From Pseudanabaena sp. FACHB-2040 (GTDB taxonomy: Bacteria; Cyanobacteriota; Cyanobacteriia; Phormidesmidales; Phormidesmidaceae), in NCBI RefSeq assembly GCF_014696715.1, contig NZ_JACJQO010000016.1, positions 1-64,000 on the forward strand: a DNA stretch of 64,000 bases, read 5' to 3'. A program made the translations under genes and the position numbers. The notes under the pieces were generated by a model that worked only from the letters and a program-made list of their open reading frames with translations, searched no databases and had not been told where the DNA came from. Shown in pieces: positions 323-41,020 of the stretch (positions are counted from its first letter, which is position 1; each line of letters opens with the position of its first letter).

Positions 323-568
323 CTACTCAATCATTAGGTGTTTGATATGCACCATCATCCACTGGCAATCCTTGCCGCTGGGGATGGGGTCGCTCCAGTC
401 GTCGGGGTCTGCATAGTGCAGGGTATGGAGGTACTTGGTCATGCGATCGAGGGCTTCCAAACTGCCGTAGAGCACGTTGGTGATTTTCTGGCGGCTGGGT
501 TTGGCCTTGCTCGATTGGGCAGGGTGAATTGTGGGCGGCTGAGCGCCCGTTTCGGTTGATTGAAACAT
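323..568 (-). CDS. Conserved small cyanobacterial protein of unknown function
   Basis: 81 residues, soluble, no signal peptide. The N-terminal 25 residues are low in complexity. The rest (K-I-T-N-V-L-Y-G-S-L-E-A-L-D-R onward, with Y-A-D-P-D-D-W-S) resembles a short protein type I remember from other cyanobacteria, but no function is known to me. The gene converges on psbA. A promoter-like pair at 801-830 and a leader with several hairpins precede it, and one hairpin ends right at the start codon. No clear Shine-Dalgarno is visible outside that hairpin. ATG at 568 is the only plausible start. Confidence 0.7.
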   Translation of the reverse strand: MFQSTETGAQPPTIHPAQSSKAKPSRQKITNVLYGSLEALDRMTKYLHTLHYADPDDWSDPIPSGKDCQWMMVHIKHLMIE

Positions 569-29267: not shown

Positions 29268-30356
29268 ATGGGAAACTCCTTTGGCCATCTGTTCCGCATC
29301 ACTACCTTTGGTGAGTCCCACGGGGGCGGGGTAGGGGTCGTCATTGATGGCTGCCCTCCCCAGGTAGAAATCTCGGTTGAGGAGATTCAGGCCGAGCTAG
29401 ATCGCCGTCGCCCAGGCCAAAGCAAGATCACAACTCCGCGCAAAGAGTCAGACCGCTGCGAAATTCTCTCGGGCGTTTTTGAGGGTAAGACGCTGGGTAC
29501 GCCCATCTCAATCTTGGTGCGTAATCAAGACACTCGGCCCCAGGACTACAGTGAGATGGCCACCACCTACCGCCCATCTCATGCTGATGCCACCTATGAC
29601 GCTAAGTACGGCATTCGCAACTACCAAGGCGGCGGGCGATCTTCAGCGCGGGAAACGATTGGTCGGGTGGCGGCAGGTGCGATCGCAAAAAAAATTCTCC
29701 ATCAGTACTCTGGCTTAGAAATCATCGGCTACGTCAAGCGCATTCAAGATCTCGAAGGCACTGTTGACCCCGAAACCGTCACCCTAGCCCAAGTCGAAAG
29801 CAACATCGTGCGCTGCCCCGATGCCGAAGCCGCCGAGCGCATGATCGACCGCATTGAGCAAATCCGCGACCAAGGCGACTCCATTGGCGGCGTGGTCGAA
29901 TGCGTTGCTCGCAACGTTCCCCGAGGGCTGGGCGATCCGGTCTTTGACAAGCTAGAGGCCGACCTGGCCAAGGGCATGATGTCGCTACCGGCCAGCAAAG
30001 GCTTTGAGCTGGGCTCCGGCTTTGCCGGGACTTTGCTCTCTGGCAGTGAGCACAACGACGAGTTTTACACCGACGCAGCAGGCCAGGTTCGAACCCGCAC
30101 CAACCGCTCTGGCGGCACCCAGGGCGGCATCTCCAACGGTGAGAACATCATCATTCGCGTGGCCTTTAAACCCACAGCCACCATTCGCAAAGCTCAAAAC
30201 ACCGTGACCAACACAGGGGAAGAAACCGTGTTGTCGGCCAAGGGCCGCCACGATCCCTGTGTGCTGCCTCGGGCGGTGCCGATGGTAGAGGCAATGGTAG
30301 CGCTCGTGCTGTGCGATCACCTGCTGCGGCACCACGGTCAGTGTGAGCTGCTTTAA
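29268..30356 (+). CDS. aroC: Chorismate synthase
   Basis: 362 residues. Forms chorismate from EPSP with reduced FMN in the shikimate pathway. Clear family motifs are G-E-S-H-G at the start, then [21 protein letters not shown] near residue 122, and the C-terminal R-H-D-P-C-V. Length is standard for the bacterial enzyme. It starts 32 bases after the M23 gene. Confidence 0.97.
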
Positions 30357-30439
30357 AGATTCCTTGGGGCAAAGTTGCGATCGCTCAAAGTCAGCCGCAA
30401 CTGTGAGAGCCTACTGAAAGCCGTCTCGCTCTCTAGCCT

Positions 30440-30787
30440 ATGAAGCTCACCTCCCTCGACACCGTGCCAGAAGAAGCCGTTTCTCACAACCCAGCGATCA
30501 AAAAGCGCGTGATGCTGCGGCTGGGCGACCTGCCCCACTTGACCAACTTCTCCCAGGCCCGCTTTGCGCCCGGTCAGATTGCCAACGGCCACGCCCATAC
30601 CGACATGGCCGAAGTCTTTTTTGTCGAGGCAGGTCAGGGCACCATCACCATTGAGGGCAAAGCCTACCCGCTCACCCCCGGCACCTGCGTGGCCGTCGAA
30701 CCCAACGAAACCCATGAAGTCGTCAATGATGGCGAGGTTGAACTGGTGCTCACCTATTTCGGCCTGCGGGCTCAGGCGGCTCACTGA
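30440..30787 (+). CDS. Small cupin-domain protein
   Basis: 115 residues forming one cupin barrel. H-A-H-T-D-M-A-E-V-F-F-V is motif 1 with two His and a Glu for metal, and N-E-T-H-E-V holds the His of motif 2. It is cytoplasmic. Such small cupins bind metal or sugar; the exact role is unknown. It lies 83 bases after aroC and 58 bases before the next gene on the same strand. Confidence 0.88.
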   Translation: MKLTSLDTVPEEAVSHNPAIKKRVMLRLGDLPHLTNFSQARFAPGQIANGHAHTDMAEVFFVEAGQGTITIEGKAYPLTPGTCVAVEPNETHEVVNDGEVELVLTYFGLRAQAAH

Positions 30788-30845
30788 TATTGCTTTGCTC
30801 ATAGGTTAATCTGACGAAATCCATCACGTTGCCTACAGGATTTCT

Positions 30846-31988
30846 ATGCAGCCCCTGATCTCTACCCTGCCGCTTATGCAGATGGCGTCGGGAGACGAAC
30901 TCTCGCTCCAGCTCTACCGCTTTGTGGGCGAGTCGCCGGGGAAAAAGGTCTATCTGCAGTCCAACCTGCACGGAGCAGAGCTGGCTGGAAATGCGGTCAT
31001 TCACCAATTAATCAACTGGCTAAGCAGCCTAGAGCCAGCCCAACTCCAGGGCGAGATTTGGCTGGTGCCGGTCTGCAATCCGCTAGGGGTCAATACCCGC
31101 AGCCACAGCTTTTCGTCGGGCCGCTACAACCCCTACGATGGGCACGACTGGAACCGCATTTTTTGGGATTACGGATCAGAGGCTGAGGCTGAAGCCGACA
31201 TTGCAGCTTTTGCCCAAAGTCACTTAGAGTCAGACCCGGAGACTATTTTGCAGGCTTATCGGCAGCAGATTTTAGCTGCGTTTCAGGCAAAATCTGCAGA
31301 TCTAGCGGCTCCCCCTAGCGTTCCGGTACACGTTCTCTACAGCACCCGGCTGCAGGCTCTAGCAATTGATGCCGACTACCTAATCGATCTGCACACCTCT
31401 AGCAATCGCGGCTTGACCTACCTGTACTACTTTGCCGAGCGGGCTGCGGCTGCCCGCCTGTTTGGCCTACAGTTTGCGGCCCTGCTCGATGATTACGATG
31501 GCGATGCCTTTGATGAAACCTTTATCAAGCCCTGGCTAGCTCTAGAGAGCGCATTCAAAACCCTAGGTCGTCACCTCCGCTTTGAGATCGAAGCCTACAC
31601 CCTAGAACTGGGTACAAGCATGGACATTAACCCAGTGGCTGTAGAGCGGGGACTGCAGAGCATTCAGCACTACCTGGGCGAGAAAGGGGTGATTACCGGC
31701 GTGCCTCTGTCGCGGGTGGAAACCCGAGAGCTGGTGATGACCCGCACCAGCCAGTTCACAAAGTACTTTGCGCCTGTGGGCGGCTTTTTGCAGTCACGGG
31801 TCGAGCCGGGCACCTGGGTTAGGGCAGGAACTGTGCTCTACTCGCTCTTGTGCTTCAACAAGTCAAGCCAGTTGCCCAGCACCAAACCGATTCGAGCAGA
31901 GCACGCGGGTCTGGTGTATGACGTGTCGATTAACCAGGCATTTAACCAGGGGGAGTATGTACTGGCCGTGCTGCAACCCGATGACTAG
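30846..31988 (+). CDS. AstE/AspA family zinc deacylase-like protein
   Basis: 380 residues. Q-S-N-L-H-G-A-E-L-A-G-N carries the H-x2-E zinc site of succinylglutamate desuccinylase/aspartoacylase enzymes. V-C-N-P-L-G and the R-x-S-H-S-F segment follow, L-I-D-L-H-T-S supplies the third ligand, and E-A-Y-T-L-E-L-G the catalytic Glu. The C-terminal 100 residues (Q-F-T-K-Y-F-A-P-V-G-G-F) are a biotinyl-like barrel usual in this family. The substrate, an N-acyl amino acid or similar, is not known. Confidence 0.88.
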   Translation: MQPLISTLPLMQMASGDELSLQLYRFVGESPGKKVYLQSNLHGAELAGNAVIHQLINWLSSLEPAQLQGEIWLVPVCNPLGVNTRSHSFSSGRYNPYDGHDWNRIFWDYGSEAEAEADIAAFAQSHLESDPETILQAYRQQILAAFQAKSADLAAPPSVPVHVLYSTRLQALAIDADYLIDLHTSSNRGLTYLYYFAERAAAARLFGLQFAALLDDYDGDAFDETFIKPWLALESAFKTLGRHLRFEIEAYTLELGTSMDINPVAVERGLQSIQHYLGEKGVITGVPLSRVETRELVMTRTSQFTKYFAPVGGFLQSRVEPGTWVRAGTVLYSLLCFNKSSQLPSTKPIRAEHAGLVYDVSINQAFNQGEYVLAVLQPDD

Positions 31989-32231
31989 TTCCCCTGCAAG
32001 AATCCTGACAGGTTCAGGTTGCTTAGTGGTTAAAGCAATGCTGGCGCGAAGGGCCCAAACTCGCTTCTTTTAAGAAATTTTAGCGATCCCTGGACCATTG
32101 ATCTTCAGAAAACTTAATTGCCAGCCTCAGCCAGAGAGATGCGTTTCGACTCAGGATGCAATAGCATTAAATTAGAGAAGAAACGGTAGCAAAGGCTACG
32201 GTTTTATCCCCCCACCCAGAGGAGCCGAAGT

Positions 32232-32363
32232 ATGCGACGGGAAGCGTCTAAATCCAACCGGCAGCAAGTTATTGAAGAACTGCGCCATCAGCTAAGGTAT
32301 GCCAGCACCCACGAGCGGGAAGGCATTCGCCGAGAACTGAATTTTTGGCTCAATAACCGTTAA
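32232..32363 (+). CDS. 43-residue basic helical microprotein
   Basis: ATG 32232 is preceded by AGAGGAG at a good distance. The peptide (M-R-R-E-A-S-K-S-N-R-Q-Q-V-I-E-E-L, continuing through R-Y-A-S-T-H-E-R to F-W-L-N-N-R) is strongly charged and likely one or two helices. A clean intrinsic terminator lies 61 bases after the stop, so this is a complete single-gene unit. Function unknown; its short length means gene callers often miss it. Confidence 0.65.
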   Translation: MRREASKSNRQQVIEELRHQLRYASTHEREGIRRELNFWLNNR

Positions 32364-32423
32364 TACTAGGGCTGCTCAACCCTAACTAAAGTTTTAAGGC
32401 TGACTCCATCGAGGGAAAATTCA

Positions 32424-32445
32424 AACCGGCGGTTGCCGGTTTTTT
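32424..32445 (+). terminator. Rho-independent terminator of the microprotein gene
   Basis: AACCGGC (32424-32430) and GCCGGTT (32435-32441) around GGTT, followed by a run of six or seven T. It closes the unit 32232-32363. Confidence 0.92.
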
Positions 32446-32554
32446 ATTGACTGTTCTCTGCTTCTTCACGGTTGCGGGGTATGGTTACTTCAAGGTTGTC
32501 GGGGAGCCCCCCTCTCTCTGATTAACCTACCGCACTGATCCCCCACAGGCGGCA

Positions 32555-32596
32555 TGCCTTGCGTCTTTTCACGAACAATTGCCTTGCGTCTTTTCA
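32555..32596. repeat. 17-bp direct repeat, 25-bp step
   Basis: TGCCTTGCGTCTTTTCA occurs at 32555-32571 and again at 32580-32596 with eight bases between. It lies in the ~310-base gap between the microprotein terminator and the TPR gene at 32761, which otherwise shows no gene. It could be a regulator binding pair or a chance duplication. Confidence 0.75.
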
Positions 32597-32760
32597 TTCC
32601 ACCTAATACCGGTTCTCCCTACTATCACTATCACTGCTACTCTGAGTGCAGCCCCCTGCACCCCCAGTAGAGATAGTCTGTAGCCCGACTATAGGGGATT
32701 GGTATCAGGACAGCGCTTTAGCAGAATTTCTGCTTCTCCAGACACACAAGGAGCCCCCTC

Positions 32761-34452
32761 GTGGCTTTCGTTAGACTCTTTTTTGTTGCTCTAGCAGCAG
32801 TTTTGCTAGGGCTGGGATTGACAGCCTCTCCCCTGCTGTCTGACCTCCCTCAAGCTGCCAGCAGCCGATCAGCACTGGCAGCTTCTCCATCTGCTCCTAC
32901 CCCCCTATTTAGCGATCTAGGAGATTTTCACTACCCCATTTCAACCCGCTCTGATCTGGCCCAGCAGTACTTTGACCAGGGTTGGGTGCTGGCCTACGGC
33001 TTTAACCATGCAGAGGCAGTCCGGTCTTTTCAGGCAGCGATTGAAGCCGATCCCGACTGTGCCCTGTGCTATTTTGGGCTGGCCTACGTATTAGGCCCAA
33101 ATATCAATGCGCCTATGGAGATCGAGGCCGCCGAAACGGCCTGGGAAACGATGCAGCATGCGATCGCACTTTCCCCCGCCGCCTCAGCCAAAGAACGCGC
33201 CCTGATCAACGCTCTCGCTACTCGCTACACAGCTGCTCCCACAGCTAATCGGGCCTCATTAGATCGGGCTTATGCCGCCGCCCTCAAGACAGTTCATCAG
33301 CAATATCCAGAAGATCTGGAAATCGCCACTCTGTATGCCGAAGCGCTGATGGACACTATGCCCTGGGACTACTGGGACGAGGCGGGCAACCCCAAACCCA
33401 CAACGCGCGAAATCTTGAAAACCCTGGAGGCGGTGCTAGAGCAGAACCCGGATCAGATCGGGGCCTTGCACCTCTATATTCATGCTGTGGAAAAAGAGCG
33501 GCCCGAACTAGCCGAAGCAGCGGCTGATCGACTGGGGGCACTGGTGCCCGGATCAGGTCATCTAGTGCATATGCCCTCTCATATCTACATTCGCGTGGGC
33601 CGCTACCACGATGCGGTGGTGGCTAACCAGGATGCGATCGCAGCCGATGCAGCCTATCTCAAGATCAGCCCTACTCCCAGTCTTTACACTGTCGCCTACA
33701 TGCCCCACAACCACCACTTCGCTTGGTTTGGGGCGATGATGACTGGGCAGCGAGCAGTTGCAATGGCTGCCGCCGAGCAGACCGCACGGGTAGAAGGCGA
33801 GCTGTGGCACGCTCCCGAATTGGCCGGTTCGCTCCAGCACTATTATTCGGTGCCTCTCTACACGCAGGTGCGATTTAGCCAGTGGAACGAAATTCTTAAG
33901 ACACCCGCGCCTGCTGCCGAGTTGAAATATCCGGTCGGCGTCTGGCACTATGCTCAGGGCATGGCGCTGGCAGCAACGGATCGGCCTAGGGCAGCAGCGG
34001 ATCATTTGCGATCGCTCCAGGCCCTAATCGCCGATCCTGAGATTGGGGAAATGCGAATTTGGGGCTTCAACTCCACCCGTCAGGCATTGAGCATTGCTGA
34101 GGCTGTGCTGGCCGGCGAAATTGCAGCGGCCCAGGGAAACTACGACCGCGCTGTGACCTACCTGCAGTCTGCCGTGGCCCAGGAGGACGAATTGACCTAC
34201 ACCGAACCCCCTGACTGGTATGCCCCCACCCGCAACCTGCTGGGTCAGGTGCTGCTGGCAGCCGGGCGCTATGCCGACGCCGAATCGGCCTTCCAGGCAG
34301 ATTTAGAAAACTATCCTCAAAACGGCTGGTCTCTGCAGGGTCTGGCCCAAAGCCTGCGAGCCCAAAACAAGCTATCAGAGGCTGATTCTGTACAGGCCCA
34401 GTTTGAAGCGGCCTGGCAATATGCCGACATCACTCTGCCAATATCCGGTTAA
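32761..34452 (+). CDS. Exported or anchored TPR-repeat protein, first gene of the GNAT operon
   Basis: 563 residues from GTG 32761, eight bases after AAGGAG. A signal peptide or anchor (F-V-R-L-F-F-V-A-L-A-A-V-L-L-G-L-G-L) is followed by tetratricopeptide repeats, e.g. F-N-H-A-E-A-V-R-S-F-Q-A-A-I-E-A-D-P near residue 85 and G-R-Y-A-D-A-E-S-A-F-Q-A near 500. H-M-P-S-H-I-Y-I-R-V-G-R-Y and M-P-H-N-H-H-F are His-rich and look like conserved family positions. The likely role is protein-protein contact outside the cytoplasm. The next gene starts 21 bases downstream. Confidence 0.85.
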   Translation: MAFVRLFFVALAAVLLGLGLTASPLLSDLPQAASSRSALAASPSAPTPLFSDLGDFHYPISTRSDLAQQYFDQGWVLAYGFNHAEAVRSFQAAIEADPDCALCYFGLAYVLGPNINAPMEIEAAETAWETMQHAIALSPAASAKERALINALATRYTAAPTANRASLDRAYAAALKTVHQQYPEDLEIATLYAEALMDTMPWDYWDEAGNPKPTTREILKTLEAVLEQNPDQIGALHLYIHAVEKERPELAEAAADRLGALVPGSGHLVHMPSHIYIRVGRYHDAVVANQDAIAADAAYLKISPTPSLYTVAYMPHNHHFAWFGAMMTGQRAVAMAAAEQTARVEGELWHAPELAGSLQHYYSVPLYTQVRFSQWNEILKTPAPAAELKYPVGVWHYAQGMALAATDRPRAAADHLRSLQALIADPEIGEMRIWGFNSTRQALSIAEAVLAGEIAAAQGNYDRAVTYLQSAVAQEDELTYTEPPDWYAPTRNLLGQVLLAAGRYADAESAFQADLENYPQNGWSLQGLAQSLRAQNKLSEADSVQAQFEAAWQYADITLPISG

Positions 34453-34473
34453 CTCTTAGCTCCTGGCCAAACT

Positions 34474-35079
34474 ATGTTGACAATCACCACAACCTATCGT
34501 CCCGCCCGTGTCGAGGACTGCTTCACCATTGCCCGTCTGTTTCAAATTGCTGCCGATGGCGTAGTCGACTATCTCTGGTCCACCCTCCAGGCCGACTATC
34601 CGGGTCTTACTCCTTTAGAAATTGGGGCTCAGCGCTTTGCCAATCCTGACAGCAACTGCAGTTACCGCAACTGTGTCATGGCCGAGCGGGAGGCTGAAAT
34701 TGTGGGCATGATGATGACCTTTGCGATCGCAGAGCCAGACGAAGCCCCCCAAGCACTCTCGACTGAGACCGACAGCGAAATCCCAGACGTCATGGCTCCC
34801 TATGCCCTGGAAAAAGCAGGTACCTGGTACATCTGCGCCCTCGCCGTTTTTCCTGAGTTTCGCGGTCAGGGCATTGGCTCTGGCCTTCTGGCGCTGGCCC
34901 ACCGGCAGGCCAGAGAGCAGGGCTTTGAGGAACTCAGCCTACTCTGCTTTGAGCAAAACATGGGCGCGAAGCAGCTGTACGAGCGCTGCGGATTCAAAAC
35001 CATCGACCGTACCCCGGTGGTGCCCCACCCGCTAATTCACCATACTGGAGATCTGCTGCTGATGACCGTGGAGGCTTGA
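34474..35079 (+). CDS. GNAT family N-acetyltransferase (1st of four)
   Basis: 201 residues. The acetyl-CoA site reads L-A-V-F-P-E-F-R-G-Q-G-I-G-S-G-L-L, preceded by the beta-4 strand W-Y-I-C-A, and N-M-G-A-K-Q-L-Y-E-R-C-G-F is the C-terminal GNAT motif. An insertion of about 30 residues (rich in Glu/Asp/Pro) lies before the core. It transfers an acetyl group from acetyl-CoA to an unknown amine. It starts 21 bases after the TPR gene and its stop is one base before the next start, which shows an operon. Confidence 0.92.
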   Translation: MLTITTTYRPARVEDCFTIARLFQIAADGVVDYLWSTLQADYPGLTPLEIGAQRFANPDSNCSYRNCVMAEREAEIVGMMMTFAIAEPDEAPQALSTETDSEIPDVMAPYALEKAGTWYICALAVFPEFRGQGIGSGLLALAHRQAREQGFEELSLLCFEQNMGAKQLYERCGFKTIDRTPVVPHPLIHHTGDLLLMTVEA

Positions 35080-35080
35080 G

Positions 35081-35971
35081 TTGGCTGGCGAAACCGATTT
35101 GTCTAGGCTGTTACAGTCTATGCAGCCTGAACTGAGCACAGGAGAATTTGTCTTTTGCACAGTTCTCCCCGCTCAGGTGGAGAGGCTGGCTGGACAGGCC
35201 ATCAGCCTCTTCCGCGAAGCAGAGGGAGTAAGTCTAGTACTGCCCAGGCATGAAGCTGAGCAGCAGGAAATTTCTTACCAGTATCCCTGTCGTCTAATCA
35301 CATTGCAGATTCACTCTAGTCTTGCAGCAGTCGGCTTCCTGGCCGCTGTCACCGAAGCCTTGGCAGGCTGGGGCATTAGCGTCAACCCAGTTTCTGCCTA
35401 CTACCACGACCACCTGTTTGTTCCTACAGACCAGGCTGAGCAGGCGATGGACTGTCTGGCTCAGCTGGTTCTAGCCCACCGCTACAGCTTCCAGACCATG
35501 ACGACCGCTGACAGAGAGATCGTCTGGCAAATGCTGATGCACGCTGCCCATGAAAGTTCTCTAGAGGCGGTCAAAGACCAGCCCGCGCTAGCCCGTTATG
35601 CCGCTGGCTGGGGCCGCGCCGGGGATATGGGGATCGTGGCGTTGCTGCAGGATCAGCCTATAGGAGCGGCCTGGCTGCGGCTGTGGCAGGGGCATAACCG
35701 AGGATTTGGCTTTGTGGCAGAGGACGTGCCAGAACTTGCGATCGCAGTGCTGCCTGACTACCAGAGTCAGGGTGTTGGCACTCAGCTCCTGAGCCGCCTG
35801 CTCCACAGCGCCCGAGGATGGTACGGCGCTGTGTCCCTCAGCACCCGAGCCGACAATCCTGCAGTCAAGCTCTACGAGCGCATGGGGTTTGTGAAGGTAC
35901 CCGATAGCGAAGTCATCAACCGCACAGGTGGAGTTTCCTTCACTATGATCTGTGAGTTGGAGGGTCTGTAA
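35081..35971 (+). CDS. ACT_3 (DUF2241) domain fused to a GNAT acetyltransferase
   Basis: 296 residues from TTG 35081, six bases after GGAGG. Residues about 5-135 form an ACT-type domain: I-T-L-Q-I-H-S-S-L-A-A-V-G-F, then A-Y-Y-H-D-H-L-F-V-P, the mark of the small ACT_3 proteins thought to bind amino acids. Residues about 150-290 are a GNAT: V-L-P-D-Y-Q-S-Q-G-V-G-T-Q-L-L binds acetyl-CoA, and N-P-A-V-K-L-Y-E-R-M-G-F closes the fold. The arrangement suggests an acetyltransferase controlled by a bound amino acid. It is not a frameshift product; the frame is continuous. Confidence 0.88.
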   Translation: MAGETDLSRLLQSMQPELSTGEFVFCTVLPAQVERLAGQAISLFREAEGVSLVLPRHEAEQQEISYQYPCRLITLQIHSSLAAVGFLAAVTEALAGWGISVNPVSAYYHDHLFVPTDQAEQAMDCLAQLVLAHRYSFQTMTTADREIVWQMLMHAAHESSLEAVKDQPALARYAAGWGRAGDMGIVALLQDQPIGAAWLRLWQGHNRGFGFVAEDVPELAIAVLPDYQSQGVGTQLLSRLLHSARGWYGAVSLSTRADNPAVKLYERMGFVKVPDSEVINRTGGVSFTMICELEGL

Positions 35972-36014
35972 GCTAGAGCCGTTGTCCTCAAAACCAATCT
36001 CCTAGAGGTTTCAG

Positions 36015-36524
36015 ATGTCTCAAACAGTGAATCCCAACCACACTTCAACCGTCGCGGTTCGCCCTATGCAGACAGGTGATATGGGGGAGATGCGATCGCT
36101 TTTCTACCAAACTGTTCACCAGATCAACAGCCGCGACTACACGCCTGAGCAGATCCAGGTTTGGGCCTCTAGCGCCAACGATGAAGCGCGCTGGCAGGCG
36201 CTGCCGAAGAAAAGCCAGGTCTTGGTGGCCGAGCACAGCGGCAAGGTGGTTGGCTTCACCAACCTTGAAGCCGATGGGCATATTGACATGTTCTTTGTCC
36301 ATCCTGAGCACCAGGGAGAGGGCATTGGCAAGCGGCTGATGCAGGCCCTAGAGAGCCTAGCCCAGGCCCAGCAGCTCGACCGCCTATACTCTGAAGTCAG
36401 CATTACTGCCAAACCCTTCTTCTTGAGGTACGACTTCTGCATCGTTACCGAGGAACAGGTCGAGCGCCAGGGCATCTGGTTCACCCGGTTCATCATGGAA
36501 AAAACATTAACCTATCCCACATAA
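36015..36524 (+). CDS. GNAT family N-acetyltransferase (3rd of four)
   Basis: 169 residues. H-P-E-H-Q-G-E-G-I-G-K-R-L-M is the acetyl-CoA loop, I-D-M-F-F-V lies before it, and F-F-L-R-Y-D-F ends the core. It resembles small PhnO/YafP-type enzymes. The TAA is followed without gap by the ATG of the methyltransferase-like gene (TAAATG). Substrate unknown. Confidence 0.92.
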   Translation: MSQTVNPNHTSTVAVRPMQTGDMGEMRSLFYQTVHQINSRDYTPEQIQVWASSANDEARWQALPKKSQVLVAEHSGKVVGFTNLEADGHIDMFFVHPEHQGEGIGKRLMQALESLAQAQQLDRLYSEVSITAKPFFLRYDFCIVTEEQVERQGIWFTRFIMEKTLTYPT

Positions 36525-37205
36525 ATGGCGTTCACCCTCGACAAAGTAGTGCCTTGGGGCCGTTCCTTTGCAGAATACGTGGCGATGTTTGCGCTGTCTG
36601 AGACAGATTTGGAGCAGCGCATTCTCGGCTGTGGGGATGGCCCAGCCGCCTTTAACTCTGAGCTGACTCAGCAGGGCGGGCAGGTCACGTCAACTGACCC
36701 GATCTACCAGTTCACAGCTGAGGAAATTCGCGCCCGGATCGCCGCCACCTTTGCAGAAGTAGTTGAAAAGACCCGCCAAAACTTGGACGATTTTAATTGG
36801 ACAAGCATTCGCTCGCCGGAAGAACTAGGCCAGGTTCGCATGGCGGCAATGGAGCAGTTTTTGGCCGACTTCGACCTGGGCAAAGCTCAGAGGCGCTACA
36901 TCACAGCCAGCCTACCCGAACTGCCCTTTGCTGACGACAGCTTTGATCTGGCGCTTTGCTCCCACTTTCTCTTTCTCTACAGTCCACAGTTCGATGTTGA
37001 GTTTCACCTAGCTGCTGTTCAGGAAATGCTGCGGGTCGCCCCAGAGGTGCGGATTTTTCCGTTAGTAGAGTTGGGTAACGCCAGGTCGCGCCACCTAGAC
37101 TGGGTGATGGCTCAGCTCAAAGCTCTAGGGCACTCCCTGCAGGTCAGAACCGTCGTCTACGAGTTTCAGAAGGGCGGCAATAAAATGCTGTGCATCCACC
37201 GCTGA
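36525..37205 (+). CDS. SAM-dependent methyltransferase-like protein
   Basis: 226 residues. I-L-G-C-G-D-G-P-A-A-F-N is a class I SAM-binding loop (motif I), T-S-T-D-P-I-Y-Q-F the acidic motif II, and L-P-F-A-D-D-S-F-D-L-A-L-C-S-H-F-L-F the motif IV/V region. It is soluble and of normal length. The acceptor is unknown. It sits between two GNAT genes with no gap before and 34 bases after, so it is a part of the same operon. Confidence 0.85.
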   Translation: MAFTLDKVVPWGRSFAEYVAMFALSETDLEQRILGCGDGPAAFNSELTQQGGQVTSTDPIYQFTAEEIRARIAATFAEVVEKTRQNLDDFNWTSIRSPEELGQVRMAAMEQFLADFDLGKAQRRYITASLPELPFADDSFDLALCSHFLFLYSPQFDVEFHLAAVQEMLRVAPEVRIFPLVELGNARSRHLDWVMAQLKALGHSLQVRTVVYEFQKGGNKMLCIHR

Positions 37206-37239
37206 GTCTGTTGATAAGCCTGTTGATGAGTCTGTTGTT
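37204..37239. repeat. Three 12-bp repeats directly before a start codon
   Basis: GAGTCTGTTGAT, AAGCCTGTTGAT and GAGTCTGTTGTT fill all 36 bases between the methyltransferase stop (37203-37205) and the ATG at 37240. No Shine-Dalgarno is visible apart from the GAG words in the repeats, so copy number could affect translation of the next gene. Confidence 0.8.
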
Positions 37240-37812
37240 ATGGAAGCCACCAACCTCGCTATAGTCACCCAACCCACCCTTGGCGCGGAGCGGCTGATTC
37301 TGCGGCCCTTTACCCTGGCCGATGCGCCCGACGTTCAGCGGCTGGCCGGAGAGTGGGACATTGCCGCCCGCACTCTGGTCATTCCCCATCCCTACCCCGA
37401 TGGCCTGGCAGAACAGTGGATTCGCAGCCATCCTAAAGACTTTGCCGCTGGTAACTCAGTGACCTTTGCGATCGCACTGCTCGACAACACCCTCTGCGGA
37501 GCCATTGGCCTGGGCCTGGTGCCTGAAAACCAGCTAGCCGAACTGGGCTACTGGATTGGCAAACCCTACTGGGGCAACGGCTACTGCACCGAAGCCGCCA
37601 AAGCCCTGCTCAAGCTTGGCTTTAACGACCTCGGTCTCAACCGCATCCAGGCCACCCACTATACAGACAATCCGGCCTCGGGCCGAGTCATGCAGAAGAT
37701 CGGCATGGCCTATGAGGGCTGCCGTCGCCAGCACACCTTTAGATGGGGCGAGTTTAAAGACATTAAACTCTACGGCATCCTCAAAAGCGACTGGTTAAAC
37801 GGACACAGTTAG
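37240..37812 (+). CDS. GNAT family N-acetyltransferase, RimJ/RimL type (4th of four)
   Basis: 190 residues. L-I-L-R-P-F-T-L-A-D-A at the N-terminus, L-G-Y-W-I-G-K-P-Y-W-G-N-G-Y-C-T-E-A in the core and N-P-A-S-G-R-V-M-Q-K-I-G-M near the end are typical of the Acetyltransf_3 (RimJ/RimL) group that acetylates protein N-termini or small amines. It is the last gene of the operon starting at 32761. A convergent PEP-CTERM gene ends 13 bases downstream. Confidence 0.92.
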   Translation: MEATNLAIVTQPTLGAERLILRPFTLADAPDVQRLAGEWDIAARTLVIPHPYPDGLAEQWIRSHPKDFAAGNSVTFAIALLDNTLCGAIGLGLVPENQLAELGYWIGKPYWGNGYCTEAAKALLKLGFNDLGLNRIQATHYTDNPASGRVMQKIGMAYEGCRRQHTFRWGEFKDIKLYGILKSDWLNGHS

Positions 37813-37825
37813 AGCTATAGCAAAC

Positions 37826-38740
37826 TCAGTTAAGCTCACTGTTTCTGCTGGCCTGACTGAGCCTGTACTTTTTGAGCAGGAGAGCCGCTAGCGCGGCACT
37901 GCCCAATGCGATCGCACTGCCCGGCTCGGGTATATCCTTAGCGGGACCAGGTTTCTCCGCCTTCTTCACGAACTGAAACACCACCTCACCGCCGGGGGCT
38001 AAGAGGCGGTTAAACTGAAACGCCGCTGAAACATCCGTTAAAGCATCCGTACTAGTCAGAACGCTGTTGTTGTTCAAAGTTGTGCGGGAGCTGTTGAAAA
38101 ACTCCTGCAGCAGCTTCGGGTAAAGATCTACCTGCACAAAATCTGCGGCTTGGTCAACAGTTGCAGTAACTTTTGCCCCTGTCACATCAACCTGTTGCAG
38201 AGAGTTCTTCTGAATCAACACGGAATCGAAACCAAATGTTCCGGCCACATCAAAGTCTAGATAGGAAAAGAGCGAAACCTGCTGAGCTGTGTCGGTCAGG
38301 TTCTTCAGCGTCACCGTCTCAAACCGATGAGAGGAGCCACTGTTTAGCTCGCCGCCTTGAAGCTCCAAGGAGTAGCGAAACTCTAGCGCATTGTCAAACC
38401 CGCGCAGGTAAGCCGACAGCGCATTTTCAGAGAATGTAAATGAATCTAGTGTGAAGCTGCCCAGCCCTACTTCAGGGCTCATAGGGTCTGTCCCAAAATT
38501 CAGAAAGTAGCGTTCTCCCAAAGGCCCTACGGGGACAGGGGTTTGTGGGGTAAATACCTGATTAACCCCATCTACAATCCACGCATCCACACCCAGGGTG
38601 TCTAGGTTCAGGCGGACAGTTGAGTTGTCATCATTCAGTTCCACTAGTCCTGTAGATTGAGCGTAGGCAGCCGGAAAACTCAGGCCGAAACTCACCAGTA
38701 GACTAGTCGCTATTTGCAGGGGTAATGAACGGATTTGCAT
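37826..38740 (-). CDS. PEP-CTERM anchored exported protein
   Basis: 304 residues. Signal peptide M-Q-I-R-S-L-P-L-Q-I-A-T-S-L-L-V with A-Y-A-Q cleavage context. The C-terminus has I-P-E-P-G-S-A-I-A-L-G-S-A-A-L, a hydrophobic segment and basic K-K-Y-R, the sorting signal processed by exosortase. The middle part is beta-rich without a domain that I recognise. PEP-CTERM proteins are exported and often go with exopolysaccharide production, in line with the hps operon in this window. No exosortase gene is present here. Confidence 0.85.
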   Translation of the reverse strand: MQIRSLPLQIATSLLVSFGLSFPAAYAQSTGLVELNDDNSTVRLNLDTLGVDAWIVDGVNQVFTPQTPVPVGPLGERYFLNFGTDPMSPEVGLGSFTLDSFTFSENALSAYLRGFDNALEFRYSLELQGGELNSGSSHRFETVTLKNLTDTAQQVSLFSYLDFDVAGTFGFDSVLIQKNSLQQVDVTGAKVTATVDQAADFVQVDLYPKLLQEFFNSSRTTLNNNSVLTSTDALTDVSAAFQFNRLLAPGGEVVFQFVKKAEKPGPAKDIPEPGSAIALGSAALAALLLKKYRLSQASRNSELN

Positions 38741-39142
38741 GGTCCCTTAAGTGCGATGACTGAAGCGTTTCCCGATTGCCACCTGATTCGAGTGCTGTTC
38801 TACACACCGACAATAGCCAAGCTCAGGTCTCAGCTGCCTGCCGTATCCGTGTTATTACTGAAAACTTCAAAAAAGCCTCTATTTCTTGAAGATGCCAACA
38901 ATCCGGGAAACCAAAGGAGCTGAACCTTTAGTTCGGCCATTAAATTCTCTGGCAGGGGTAAAACCCCATGTTCCTAATGAACGTCAAAAACCCTGATTCA
39001 GTACGGTGATGAAGATCACCTGTAGAGGCACCCTGATATATACGAGGCAACCAAAGTCAGATCACTACGTTTCGGTAAAAACCTGTTGGCAGATCAAAAA
39101 TTACGTTTAGGCTAATTGAGTTAGTTACGCGCATTTTGTTCC
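38741..39142. other. Intergenic region between divergent genes
   Basis: About 400 bases separating the PEP-CTERM gene (leftward) and the CDF transporter (rightward). It contains a short palindrome GGTGAT-GAAG-ATCACC (39005-39020), AGGGGTAAAACCCCA near 38955, and a weak promoter-like pair TTGGCA/TAGGCT near 39087-39115. These may control the metal transporter, but no known metal-regulator box was recognised. No convincing gene. Confidence 0.4.
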
Positions 39143-40081
39143 TTGAATCGCAATACTCAACCTCGCCAAACAGTCAGCTCCAGTGCGGTCTCTGCTCATA
39201 AGGACCACCGGGCGGCGGTCAGATGGGTCTTGATTATCACCCTGGTGATGAATGTGTGTGTGGTAGTTCTCAAGGCCCTAGTAGGCCTGTGGACGGGTTC
39301 TTTGAGCCTGCTAGCCGACGCCCTGCACAGCGTTACAGACAGCGCCAACAACGTTTTAGGGCTGGTAACCAATCAGCTTGCCAATCCTCGACCTGACCGT
39401 GATCACCCCTACGGCCACCAGAAGTTTGAAGCGATTGGCGCGTTGGGCATTGCCGCCTTTTTAGGCATTGCCTGCTTTGAAATTCTTAAAGGAGCGGTCG
39501 AGCGCTTACTGCAGGGTGGAGAACCTGTTCAGGTAACGGCATCGGCTCTATGGATCATGCTGCTGGTGCTGGGCATCAATATATTTGTCGCCTTTTACGA
39601 ACGCAAAGTCGGCCTGCGCTTAGGCAGCAAAATTTTGATTGCCGATGCCCGACATACCATGAGCGATGTCTGGATTACTATTGCCGTGATTGGAGGGCTG
39701 ATAGGCATCTGGCGAGGTTGGCAGTGGATGGATGTCGCTCTAGCTTTTCCCGTAGCAGTGCTTGTTTTCAAGAGCGGGTGGGCGGTTCTGCGCGAGAACC
39801 TACCCTGGCTAGTTGATGAAATGGCGATCGCACCCGAAGCAATTCATAGCCAGGTAATGAAGGTGCCAGGTGTGATCAATTGCCACAATATTGCTTCTCG
39901 CGGGCTGTTGGGTCGGCAGGTTTTCATTGATATGCACCTGATTGTCGAGCCTACTAATGTCGAAGAGGCCCATCGCGTTACAGAAGAGGTCGAATCTCTA
40001 TTAGACCAGCTCTATGGCCCGGCTCGAATTACGATTCATATTGAGCCTCCCCACTACGAGTCTGGCGAAATTAGCTACTAA
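39143..40081 (+). CDS. Cation diffusion facilitator family transporter
   Basis: 312 residues with six transmembrane helices. A-D-A-L-H-S-V-T-D-S and A-D-A-R-H-T-M-S-D hold the metal-binding Asp/His of helices 2 and 5, and H-P-Y-G-H-Q-K-F-E is the typical loop. The C-terminal domain (V-I-N-C-H-N-I-A-S-R, later I-D-M-H-L-I-V) is the cytoplasmic metallochaperone-like part. It exports Zn2+, Fe2+, Mn2+ or similar ions in exchange for protons. TTG 39143 is the best start, since no ATG comes before the first helix; the ribosome site is poor. Confidence 0.93.
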   Translation: MNRNTQPRQTVSSSAVSAHKDHRAAVRWVLIITLVMNVCVVVLKALVGLWTGSLSLLADALHSVTDSANNVLGLVTNQLANPRPDRDHPYGHQKFEAIGALGIAAFLGIACFEILKGAVERLLQGGEPVQVTASALWIMLLVLGINIFVAFYERKVGLRLGSKILIADARHTMSDVWITIAVIGGLIGIWRGWQWMDVALAFPVAVLVFKSGWAVLRENLPWLVDEMAIAPEAIHSQVMKVPGVINCHNIASRGLLGRQVFIDMHLIVEPTNVEEAHRVTEEVESLLDQLYGPARITIHIEPPHYESGEISY

Positions 40082-40190
40082 ATTAGCTATCATGAATGGC
40101 TAATCAATGAACTGGTAAATGCAGGCGTAGAGGGGCTGTAATTCCTAGCTGAGGGGTTTCTCCCTACACCCCAAATTAGCGTTAACATGC

Positions 40191-40367
40191 TTACTTTGCT
40201 TTCCAGGTGCCCCCGTAGCGGTAGTAGGGGTTATTCTGGCTAAGTTGGCTCCAGCATTGAGGACAAACCAACCGCCATTTGCCGCTCTCATCAGACTGAA
40301 TCCGGTATCGGATAGCCGACTGTTGAGTGCAGTGTTCACAGAGTTTTAGACGAGGTTTAGAGAGCAT
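40191..40367 (-). CDS. Small zinc-ribbon-like protein
   Basis: 58 residues from ATG 40367 (a longer frame to 40418 adds a hydrophobic but unlikely start). L-C-E-H-C-T and L-V-C-P-Q-C-W-S are two C-x2-C knuckles 25 residues apart, so one zinc is likely bound. The end N-P-Y-Y-R-Y-G-G-T-W-K is distinctive and I believe it recurs in cyanobacteria. Function unknown, nucleic-acid or protein contact possible. Confidence 0.7.
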   Translation of the reverse strand: MLSKPRLKLCEHCTQQSAIRYRIQSDESGKWRLVCPQCWSQLSQNNPYYRYGGTWKAK

Positions 40368-40483
40368 TAGAATCGCTACAAGGGTCAAAAGGTACAGCCT
40401 CGGGGCACGCAGTCTCAAGTCAGTCCTGTGCGCCCTTCCTCTATCCTGGCACTGAATTTTTGATTAGTATTTTGCCTTAGGTT

Positions 40484-41020
40484 ATGAATCTTCCCACCTG
40501 GATCACGGTATCGCGTCTGGTGAGCGTTCCGCTGGTGCTCTACTTACTGCAGGCACCCACGGAGCGCGATCGTGCGATCGCAGTCGGCATCTTTCTCATT
40601 GGAGCCAGTACAGATTGGTTGGATGGCTATCTGGCTAGGCGCTTAAATCAGGTTACGGAGCTGGGTAAATTTCTCGATCCGCTGGTGGATAAACTGCTGG
40701 TTCTAGCCCCCCTGATGTCCCTCGTAGAACTCCAGCAGATACCAGCCTGGGGCGTCTTTCTAATCCTAGCAAGAGAGCTGACGGTTGCCGGTTGGCGCGT
40801 CAGTCCTTCCCTGCAGCAGGGGAGCGTGCCGGGAGCAAACCTTTGGGGCAAACTCAAAACGGTAGTACAGATTGTAGCTGTCGCTATGCTGATTGCCCCA
40901 CTGGGTGAAAATTGGGCCGTTCTTTGCCAACTTTTATTCTGGCTAGCAGTCATTCTCACCTGGGTTTCTGGCGCAGTTTACCTCTGGCCTCAGCCCTCTA
41001 GCCAAGAAATCTCTGGGTAG
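40484..41020 (+). CDS. pgsA: CDP-diacylglycerol-glycerol-3-phosphate 3-phosphatidyltransferase
   Basis: 178 residues, about four to five transmembrane helices. D-W-L-D-G-Y-L-A-R-R, then G-K-F-L-D-P-L-V-D-K fits the CDP-alcohol phosphotransferase motif D-G-x2-A-R-x8-G-x3-D-x3-D. It makes phosphatidylglycerol phosphate, the precursor of phosphatidylglycerol, which is essential in photosystems. It starts with N-L-P-T-W-I-T-V-S-R as usual. A strong hairpin follows. Confidence 0.93.
   Translation: MNLPTWITVSRLVSVPLVLYLLQAPTERDRAIAVGIFLIGASTDWLDGYLARRLNQVTELGKFLDPLVDKLLVLAPLMSLVELQQIPAWGVFLILARELTVAGWRVSPSLQQGSVPGANLWGKLKTVVQIVAVAMLIAPLGENWAVLCQLLFWLAVILTWVSGAVYLWPQPSSQEISG

What the first reader, a model, noticed from the sequence alone, without database searches (positions are those of the whole stretch)
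32761..37812. Six-gene operon with four different GNAT acetyltransferases and a methyltransferase-like protein
Gaps are 21, 1, 43, 0 and 34 bases, so these genes are made together: TPR exported protein, GNAT, ACT-GNAT, GNAT, methyltransferase, RimJ/RimL-type GNAT. The four GNATs are of different subgroups and lengths, so it is not a simple tandem duplication. This may be a modification pathway (small molecule or protein) not described so far.
Basis: partly seen in the sequence, partly recalled or inferred. Interest (0 to 1): 0.65.

Follow-up and report, generated by a model that had tools for sequence, protein, structure and literature searches.

The report
Patchwork operon of four cyanobacterial acetyltransferases
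A cyanobacterium carries six tightly packed genes, four of them different acetyltransferases; the set was not found in the related genomes examined and looks like ordinary accessory enzymes gathered together rather than an old conserved pathway, with one notable part, an acetyltransferase fused to a likely amino-acid-sensing domain.

Summary
In detail: six same-strand genes at 32761-37812 with gaps of 21, 1, 43, 0 and 34 bases: TPR, GNAT, ACT-GNAT, GNAT, methyltransferase, RimJ/RimL-type GNAT. Of 42 Acetyltransf_1 sites in the genome this is the only run longer than two; 0 of 20,000 random placements gave a run of four. The pathway reading is not supported: at the thresholds used, none of 58 relatives keeps more than two of the six as neighbours, and the only kept pair is methyltransferase-RimL, in two genomes. 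GNATs do sit beside GNATs or this methyltransferase elsewhere, but with changing partners. I read the set as a lineage-specific accretion of accessory enzymes, probably co-transcribed. The most interesting part is the ACT-GNAT: in relatives its halves are separate proteins, and no full-length homologue was seen in 62 other genomes of the order or 385 others sampled from the phylum. An Arthrobacter plasmid has the same layout, apparently fused independently; actinobacterial ACT-GNATs are amino-acid-gated protein acetyltransferases (PMC6434083). The one same-genus genome is inconclusive: its contigs end at both flanks.

The parts
32761..34452 (+). 563-aa TPR protein with an N-terminal hydrophobic, signal-peptide-like segment (GTG start)
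   Evidence: TPR_2 6.9e-12 and others; 7 of 58 relatives have a homologue at E <= 1e-50; no PDB relative at E <= 0.001. Export is judged by eye from the N-terminus.
34474..35079 (+). GNAT 1, Acetyltransf_1 subgroup, 201 aa
   Evidence: PF00583 9.8e-18; homologues in 6 of 58 relatives at E <= 1e-15; R-G-Q-G-I-G loop by eye
35081..35971 (+). ACT-GNAT fusion, 296 aa, TTG start: ACT_3 (2-71) + ACT_7 (69-127) + GNAT (about 135-290)
   Evidence: PF10000 5.7e-22, PF13840 3.1e-13, PF00583 3.3e-15; ACT half resembles VC0802 (1zvp) 3.1e-29; in relatives the two halves are separate proteins
36015..36524 (+). GNAT 3, Acetyltransf_10 subgroup, 169 aa
   Evidence: PF13673 4.2e-24; 2fiw 7.6e-24; PRK09831 model 111.9 bits, below its cut-off of 146; homologues in 30 of 58 relatives at E <= 1e-15
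36525..37205 (+). class I SAM-dependent methyltransferase, 226 aa, starts directly after the stop of GNAT 3
   Evidence: Methyltransf_11 2.3e-06; model mean pLDDT 90.2, PDB matches are class I methyltransferases of mixed substrates (2pxx E 2.3e-06, TM 0.53-0.55); homologues in 36 of 58 relatives and in several phyla
37240..37812 (+). RimJ/RimL-type GNAT, Acetyltransf_3, 190 aa
   Evidence: PF13302 4.7e-36; 1nsl 1.2e-16; 12 of 58 relatives at E <= 1e-25; next to the methyltransferase in G005 and G012

Best explanation
A lineage-specific operon built by accretion. A two-gene unit also seen in two relatives (methyltransferase + RimL-type GNAT) was joined by three other accessory acetyltransferase genes and an exported TPR protein, packed so tightly that all six are probably read together. 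The enzymes most likely act separately, each putting an acetyl or methyl group on its own small-molecule or protein target, as accessory detoxification or regulation enzymes. The third gene is a fusion of two genes that are separate in relatives: a VC0802-type ACT protein and a GNAT; by analogy with actinobacterial ACT-GNATs the ACT part probably binds an amino acid and turns the acetyltransferase up or down. Shown: gene content, packing, lack of conservation of the set in the genomes examined, the kept pair, the split halves. Inferred: one transcript, order of assembly, independent substrates, amino-acid gating.
For: Six same-strand genes with gaps 0-43. Each gene has its own patchy spread among 58 relatives: TPR 7, GNAT1 6, parts of ACT-GNAT 24, GNAT3 30, methyltransferase 36, RimL 12 (different E-value limits; own genome left out). 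Among these places only methyltransferase-RimL are neighbours, in G005 and G012. Where the methyltransferase stands elsewhere, 4 of 75 neighbours scanned (75 of 130) are GNATs: the two RimL genes, one GNAT3-like gene in G008, one on the opposite strand in G016. GNATs sit beside GNATs with changing partners: 4 of 51 same-strand immediate neighbours of GNAT homologues match Acetyltransf_1, against 42 sites in a 6.28 Mb genome; G032 has four in a row, one broken; G054 has GNAT, GNAT, methyltransferase. G005 keeps chorismate synthase next to the AstE/AspA-like gene, but other genes follow instead of the cluster. HIP1 octamers: 7 in the cluster (1.4 per kb), 49 in the window (0.8 per kb; about 1.4 expected in 64 kb from base composition).
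Against: Four GNATs in a row is far from chance, and similar themes recur: four GNATs in G032, GNAT-GNAT-methyltransferase in G054, methyltransferase followed within 24-68 bases by a GNAT in G005, G012 and G008, and in G009 the GNAT-half homologue, a second GNAT, a pentapeptide-like gene and the TPR homologue all on one strand within 6.5 kb. This could mean a functional link that tolerates swapped parts. The methyltransferase has no HIP1 site and its nearest named homologues include non-cyanobacteria (Victivallaceae 63%, Methylocaldum 62%); GNAT3 and RimL lie towards the high end of codon-use distance in the window, so transfer of single genes is not excluded. G001, of the same genus, cannot test the order. 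One transcript was not shown.
Confidence: 0.65

Rival explanations
1. A genuine multi-step modification pathway: the four GNATs and the methyltransferase act in turn on one small molecule or protein, with the TPR protein as its export or docking factor.
For: Tight packing; four GNAT subgroups plus a methyltransferase whose structural matches include natural-product methyltransferases such as TleD and DnrK; methyltransferase followed by a GNAT in G005, G012, G008; GNAT-GNAT-methyltransferase in G054; GNATs and TPR near each other in G009.
Against: None of 58 relatives keeps the set; 71 of 75 methyltransferase neighbours scanned are not GNATs by Acetyltransf_1; the structural matches also include RNA methyltransferases (Hen1, tRNA m1A58); no transporter, regulator or scaffold-building enzyme among the six; no PADLOC match.
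Confidence: 0.14
2. A cassette array or genomic island acquired in one piece (integron-like or phage-borne).
For: GNATs and methyltransferases are common integron cargo (recalled, not tested here); the set was not found in relatives; some genes have non-cyanobacterial near homologues.
Against: Gaps of 0, 1 and 21 bases leave no room for attC sites (attC size recalled; no attC search was run); no tRNA in the window; no long repeat pair flanking the cluster; no Rfam match in 30000-40500; PHROG matches are only acetyltransferase families; HIP1 density of the cluster is that of the window or higher.
Confidence: 0.07
3. Chance neighbours with no common transcription.
For: Order not conserved; GNATs are numerous (42 Acetyltransf_1 sites).
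Against: 0 of 20,000 random placements give a run of four; junctions of 0, 1 and 21 bases make separate promoters less likely, though promoters inside upstream genes are not excluded.
Confidence: 0.08

Closest known systems
AAPatA / MaKat-type ACT-GNAT protein acetyltransferases of actinobacteria (PMC6434083: abstract, sections 16 and 17 and some passages seen)
   Same: ACT domain fused before a GNAT domain; GNAT keeps a Q-x-x-G-x-G loop (QSQGVG)
   Different: Here the ACT part is of the VC0802 type (ACT_3 + ACT_7), lacks the DXPGXL motif by eye, occurs in a cyanobacterium, and its halves are separate genes in relatives; the paper calls the family unique to actinobacteria
VC0802 ACT protein (PDB 1zvp; Pfam ACT_3/ACT_7)
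   Same: Residues 1-129 match chain residues 2-130, 3.1e-29
   Different: 1zvp is a 133-residue hypothetical protein; here it is joined to a GNAT
Arthrobacter sp. StoSoilB13 306-aa ACT_3-ACT_7-GNAT protein (L169)
   Same: Same domain layout; ACT halves 45% identical
   Different: GNAT halves share only an 18-residue match at E 0.002, so it is probably a separate fusion event
RimJ/RimL-type GNATs (PDB 1nsl, 3fbu) and the 2fiw GNAT
   Same: Sequence families of the last GNAT and of GNAT 3
   Different: Substrates unknown; every NCBIfam match listed is below its cut-off, including L7/L12, S5, spermidine and bleomycin acetyltransferases

Membership tests
AAPatA amino-acid-regulated ACT-GNAT acetyltransferases | ACT domain followed by GNAT domain in one chain | tested here: met
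   Pfam ACT_3, ACT_7 then Acetyltransf_1 in 296 aa
AAPatA amino-acid-regulated ACT-GNAT acetyltransferases | QXXGX(G/A) acetyl-CoA motif | tested here: met
   QSQGVG, read by eye in the translation; motif from PMC6434083 section 17
AAPatA amino-acid-regulated ACT-GNAT acetyltransferases | DXPGXL at the beta1-alpha1 junction of the ACT domain | tested here: not met
   By eye, the stretch I take to correspond in ACT_7 reads HSSLAAVGFL: a glycine is there, D and P are not. No alignment with an AAPatA was made
AAPatA amino-acid-regulated ACT-GNAT acetyltransferases | Activation by Asn or Cys; acetylation of acetyl-CoA synthetase | not testable with these tools
   Needs enzyme assays
AAPatA amino-acid-regulated ACT-GNAT acetyltransferases | Host is an actinobacterium | tested here: not met
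   A genome of the same family (G025) is identical over 3,247 bases to a record of Tildeniella torsiva, a cyanobacterium; HIP1 octamers (cyanobacterial, recalled) are 49 against about 1.4 expected
GNAT superfamily (four members) | Above Pfam gathering score for a GNAT model | tested here: met
   All four pass for at least one GNAT model
Conserved biosynthetic operon | Gene order kept across relatives | tested here: not met
   0 of 58 relatives keep more than two of the six as neighbours at the thresholds used; 2 keep two. The same-genus genome is inconclusive
Integron cassette array | attC-sized spacers between genes | tested here: not met
   Gaps 0-43 bases; attC size recalled, no attC search run

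The most novel reading that the evidence does not exclude
Cyanobacteria repeatedly assemble partner-swapping runs of different acetyltransferases (here, G032, G054, partly G009), sometimes with a methyltransferase, because joint expression of an acetylation set pays off under some condition; in this strain the set is tuned by a newly formed amino-acid-gated ACT-GNAT, of which I found no cyanobacterial report in the listings I searched.
Probability: 0.17. Interest if true: 0.5.

Novelty: new variant of a known kind. Interest (0 to 1): 0.3.

Why it matters
It suggests that a tidy-looking operon of related enzymes can be a patchwork, a caution for reading pathways from gene order. The ACT-GNAT is a useful test case: ACT-GNAT acetyltransferases were described as unique to actinobacteria (PMC6434083), and here a fusion with a different ACT type and apparently independent origin sits in a cyanobacterium, with unfused homologues of both halves in relatives for comparison.

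Tried and rejected
Mobile or cassette origin: no tRNA, no flanking long repeats, gaps too small for attC sites (recalled size), HIP1 density like the window's. Phage cargo: PHROG acetyltransferase families only; no viral-contig relative of the ACT-GNAT. Anti-phage system: no PADLOC match. Promoter scan: zero sites in the region, so uninformative. ACT-GNAT fold from a single sequence failed (mean pLDDT 38.6) and was not used. Substrate of the methyltransferase from structure: of the 50 matches shown (130 at E <= 0.001) none exceeds 20% identity, TM about 0.4-0.55, substrates mixed, so only the fold class is claimed. Same-genus synteny: inconclusive. The PF00583 survey of 12 further genomes prints only part of its matches; it was used to pick loci (L170-L174), not as a statistic. 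Of those, G013 has two adjacent GNATs, G054 C26 two with an opposite ORF between and G022 C80 only one GNAT ORF by my local profile. Loci L158 and L165-L168 were fetched and not analysed.

Papers: searches (15 of 23 listed; 2 of 2; 10 of 999 listed; 2 of 2; none; 5 of 5). In the titles and abstract beginnings shown I saw no cyanobacterial ACT-GNAT; only two papers were opened, PMC6434083 (outline with abstract, passages, sections 16 and 17) and PMC12224894 (passages).

Rows dropped before counts: A2 holds 26 of the 36 methyltransferase homologues (near-duplicates and one with X letters left out); A1 holds 75 of the 130 neighbours (recounted); A3 leaves out 5 of 56 rows that repeat a place already present; some of its 51 rows are still orthologues of each other. 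Neighbour counts for the methyltransferase rest on 67 loci, some cut short by contig ends.

Full report
The observation. The six ORFs exist at the stated coordinates on the + strand, with gaps of exactly 21, 1, 43, 0 and 34 bases. Pfam names them TPR, Acetyltransf_1, ACT_3 + ACT_7 + Acetyltransf_1, Acetyltransf_10, a weak Methyltransf_11 and Acetyltransf_3. Among the four GNATs the strongest pairwise BLAST match is 34% over 62 residues, so they are not recent tandem copies. Every NCBIfam match listed for the six is below its cut-off (for GNAT1 25 of 30 were listed). All four GNATs keep an acetyl-CoA-loop-like stretch by eye.

Is it more than chance? The genome (6,283,586 bases, 44 contigs) has 42 Acetyltransf_1 sites. 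Taking same strand and less than 1,500 bases apart, they form one run of four, this one, and two runs of two (C17, C26). Random placement (limit 1,800 bases start to start) gave a run of four in 0 of 20,000 trials and 0.24 adjacent pairs on average, against 5 observed. A second model with an assumed 5,800 gene slots gave 1.5e-4 to 8.5e-4.

Conservation. Each search covered the own genome and 58 relatives; counts here leave the own genome out. Homologues: TPR in 7 (E <= 1e-50), GNAT1 in 6 (1e-15), parts of the ACT-GNAT in 24 (1e-20), GNAT3 in 30 (1e-15), methyltransferase in 36 (1e-3), RimL in 12 (1e-25). Reading the places together, G005 and G012 have two of the genes side by side, methyltransferase then RimL: the ORFs overlap by four bases in G012 and lie 41 bases apart in G005. 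In G017 the two are on one contig, about 3.7 kb apart with other genes between. In G009 the GNAT half and the TPR homologue lie 4.3 kb apart on one strand; between them are a second GNAT (found with my local GNAT profile) and a gene that looks by eye like a pentapeptide-repeat protein. In G008 the methyltransferase is followed 68 bases on by a GNAT with 34% identity to GNAT3 over 103 residues, below the threshold. In 39 loci from named genomes, 37 show no significant match to the TPR gene and none a match to another of the six close to the methyltransferase (E <= 1e-6): two have a TPR homologue 5-7 kb away on the other strand and one a weak GNAT1 match 9 kb away; several of these loci are short. 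The nearest named homologues of the methyltransferase include non-cyanobacteria (Victivallaceae 63%, Methylocaldum 62%, Scalindua 59%).

The same-genus genome G001 matches the window on both sides, but one contig ends at window 30553 and the other begins at 39078, so it cannot say whether the cluster is there. In G005 the chorismate synthase and AstE/AspA-like genes are adjacent as in the window, followed by other genes.

Do GNATs sit with GNATs? Of 51 same-strand immediate neighbours of homologues of the GNATs, 4 match Acetyltransf_1; by my local profile these are in G032, G009, G017 and G054, and the profile adds the broken gene of G032. Of 75 neighbours of methyltransferase homologues, 4 match: RimL in G005 and G012, the GNAT in G008, one on the opposite strand in G016. 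G032 has four GNATs in a row on one strand: a GNAT, the 57% homologue of the ACT-GNAT's GNAT half, a GNAT broken by a frame change (local profile 2.6e-06; no Pfam match), and a RimL-type GNAT. G054 has a GNAT3-like gene, another GNAT and a different methyltransferase in a row. So runs recur, with changing members; that favours accretion but leaves room for a loose functional link.

The ACT-GNAT. Residues 1-129 match VC0802 (1zvp, 3.1e-29). In relatives the matches cover either residues within about 1-149 or within about 120-294, at separate places; G032 carries both, 1.4 Mb apart. No full-length homologue was seen in 62 other genomes of the order (1e-30; 35 or so of these were also among the 58) or in 385 others drawn from the phylum (1e-45, at most six candidates scored per genome). 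Among plasmid records one place covers 80% of it: an unannotated ORF of 306 aa in Arthrobacter with the same domains, ACT halves 45% identical, GNAT halves sharing only an 18-residue match. So fusion of this ACT type to a GNAT probably happened at least twice. Lu et al. 2017 describe 150 ACT-GNATs, called unique to actinobacteria; 24 tested were activated by Asn or Cys and acetylated an acetyl-CoA synthetase (PMC6434083: abstract, sections 16-17). The present protein meets the layout and the QXXGXG motif but not, by eye, the DXPGXL motif. It may work like an AAPatA; it is not filed as one. A sequencing error that joined two adjacent genes is not excluded, though the halves abut with little or no spacer.

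The methyltransferase. A model from 27 sequences (mean pLDDT 90.2) matches class I methyltransferases; the best PDB hits are an uncharacterised human one (2pxx, TM 0.53-0.55), 2p8j, ChlM and TleD, and further down DnrK but also the RNA methyltransferases Hen1 and tRNA m1A58. Sequence finds no solved relative at E <= 0.1. Substrate unknown.

Expression and origin. No terminator-like site on + in any gap; no promoter-like site found at all in the region. The TTG start of the ACT-GNAT has GGAGG six bases upstream. HIP1 octamers: 7 in the cluster (none in the methyltransferase), 49 in the window, about 1.4 expected. Codon-use distance of the six genes lies inside the window's range, with GNAT3 and RimL towards its high end, where short genes tend to fall. 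No tRNA in the window, no Rfam match at 30000-40500, no long flanking repeat.

Verdict. A real, tightly packed and statistically unusual run of genes, best read as a lineage-specific patchwork operon of accessory acetyl- and methyltransferases; a new conserved pathway is not supported. The ACT-GNAT fusion is the part worth an assay.

Noticed in passing
32232-32363 (+): A 43-codon ORF followed by a terminator-like hairpin at 32423-32442, between the AstE/AspA-like gene and the cluster.
   Followed up: partly
32555-32596: Two perfect 17-base direct repeats (TGCCTTGCGTCTTTTCA), 25 bases start to start, upstream of the first gene of the cluster; possibly a regulator site.
   Followed up: no
L126 7917-8249 (G032): Third of four consecutive GNAT genes in a relative, broken by a frame change: a GNAT run in decay.
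   Followed up: partly
L170 5210-9517 (G054): MarR-GNAT fusion, then a GNAT3-like gene, another GNAT and a methyltransferase on one strand, with ORFs on the other strand between the first and second.
   Followed up: partly
L118 8894-12926 and L125 6167-8926: In G009 and G017 the TPR homologue is preceded by a pentapeptide-repeat gene (Pfam for L125; by eye for L118).
   Followed up: partly
323-568 (-) and L160 3918-4163 (-): Two similar 81-aa proteins in the same genome, one at the window's start and one beside a GNAT pair on contig C17.
   Followed up: no
37826-38740 (-): Convergent gene for a 304-aa protein with a possible PEP-CTERM tail (NCBIfam 13.8 bits, below cut-off 16).
   Followed up: no
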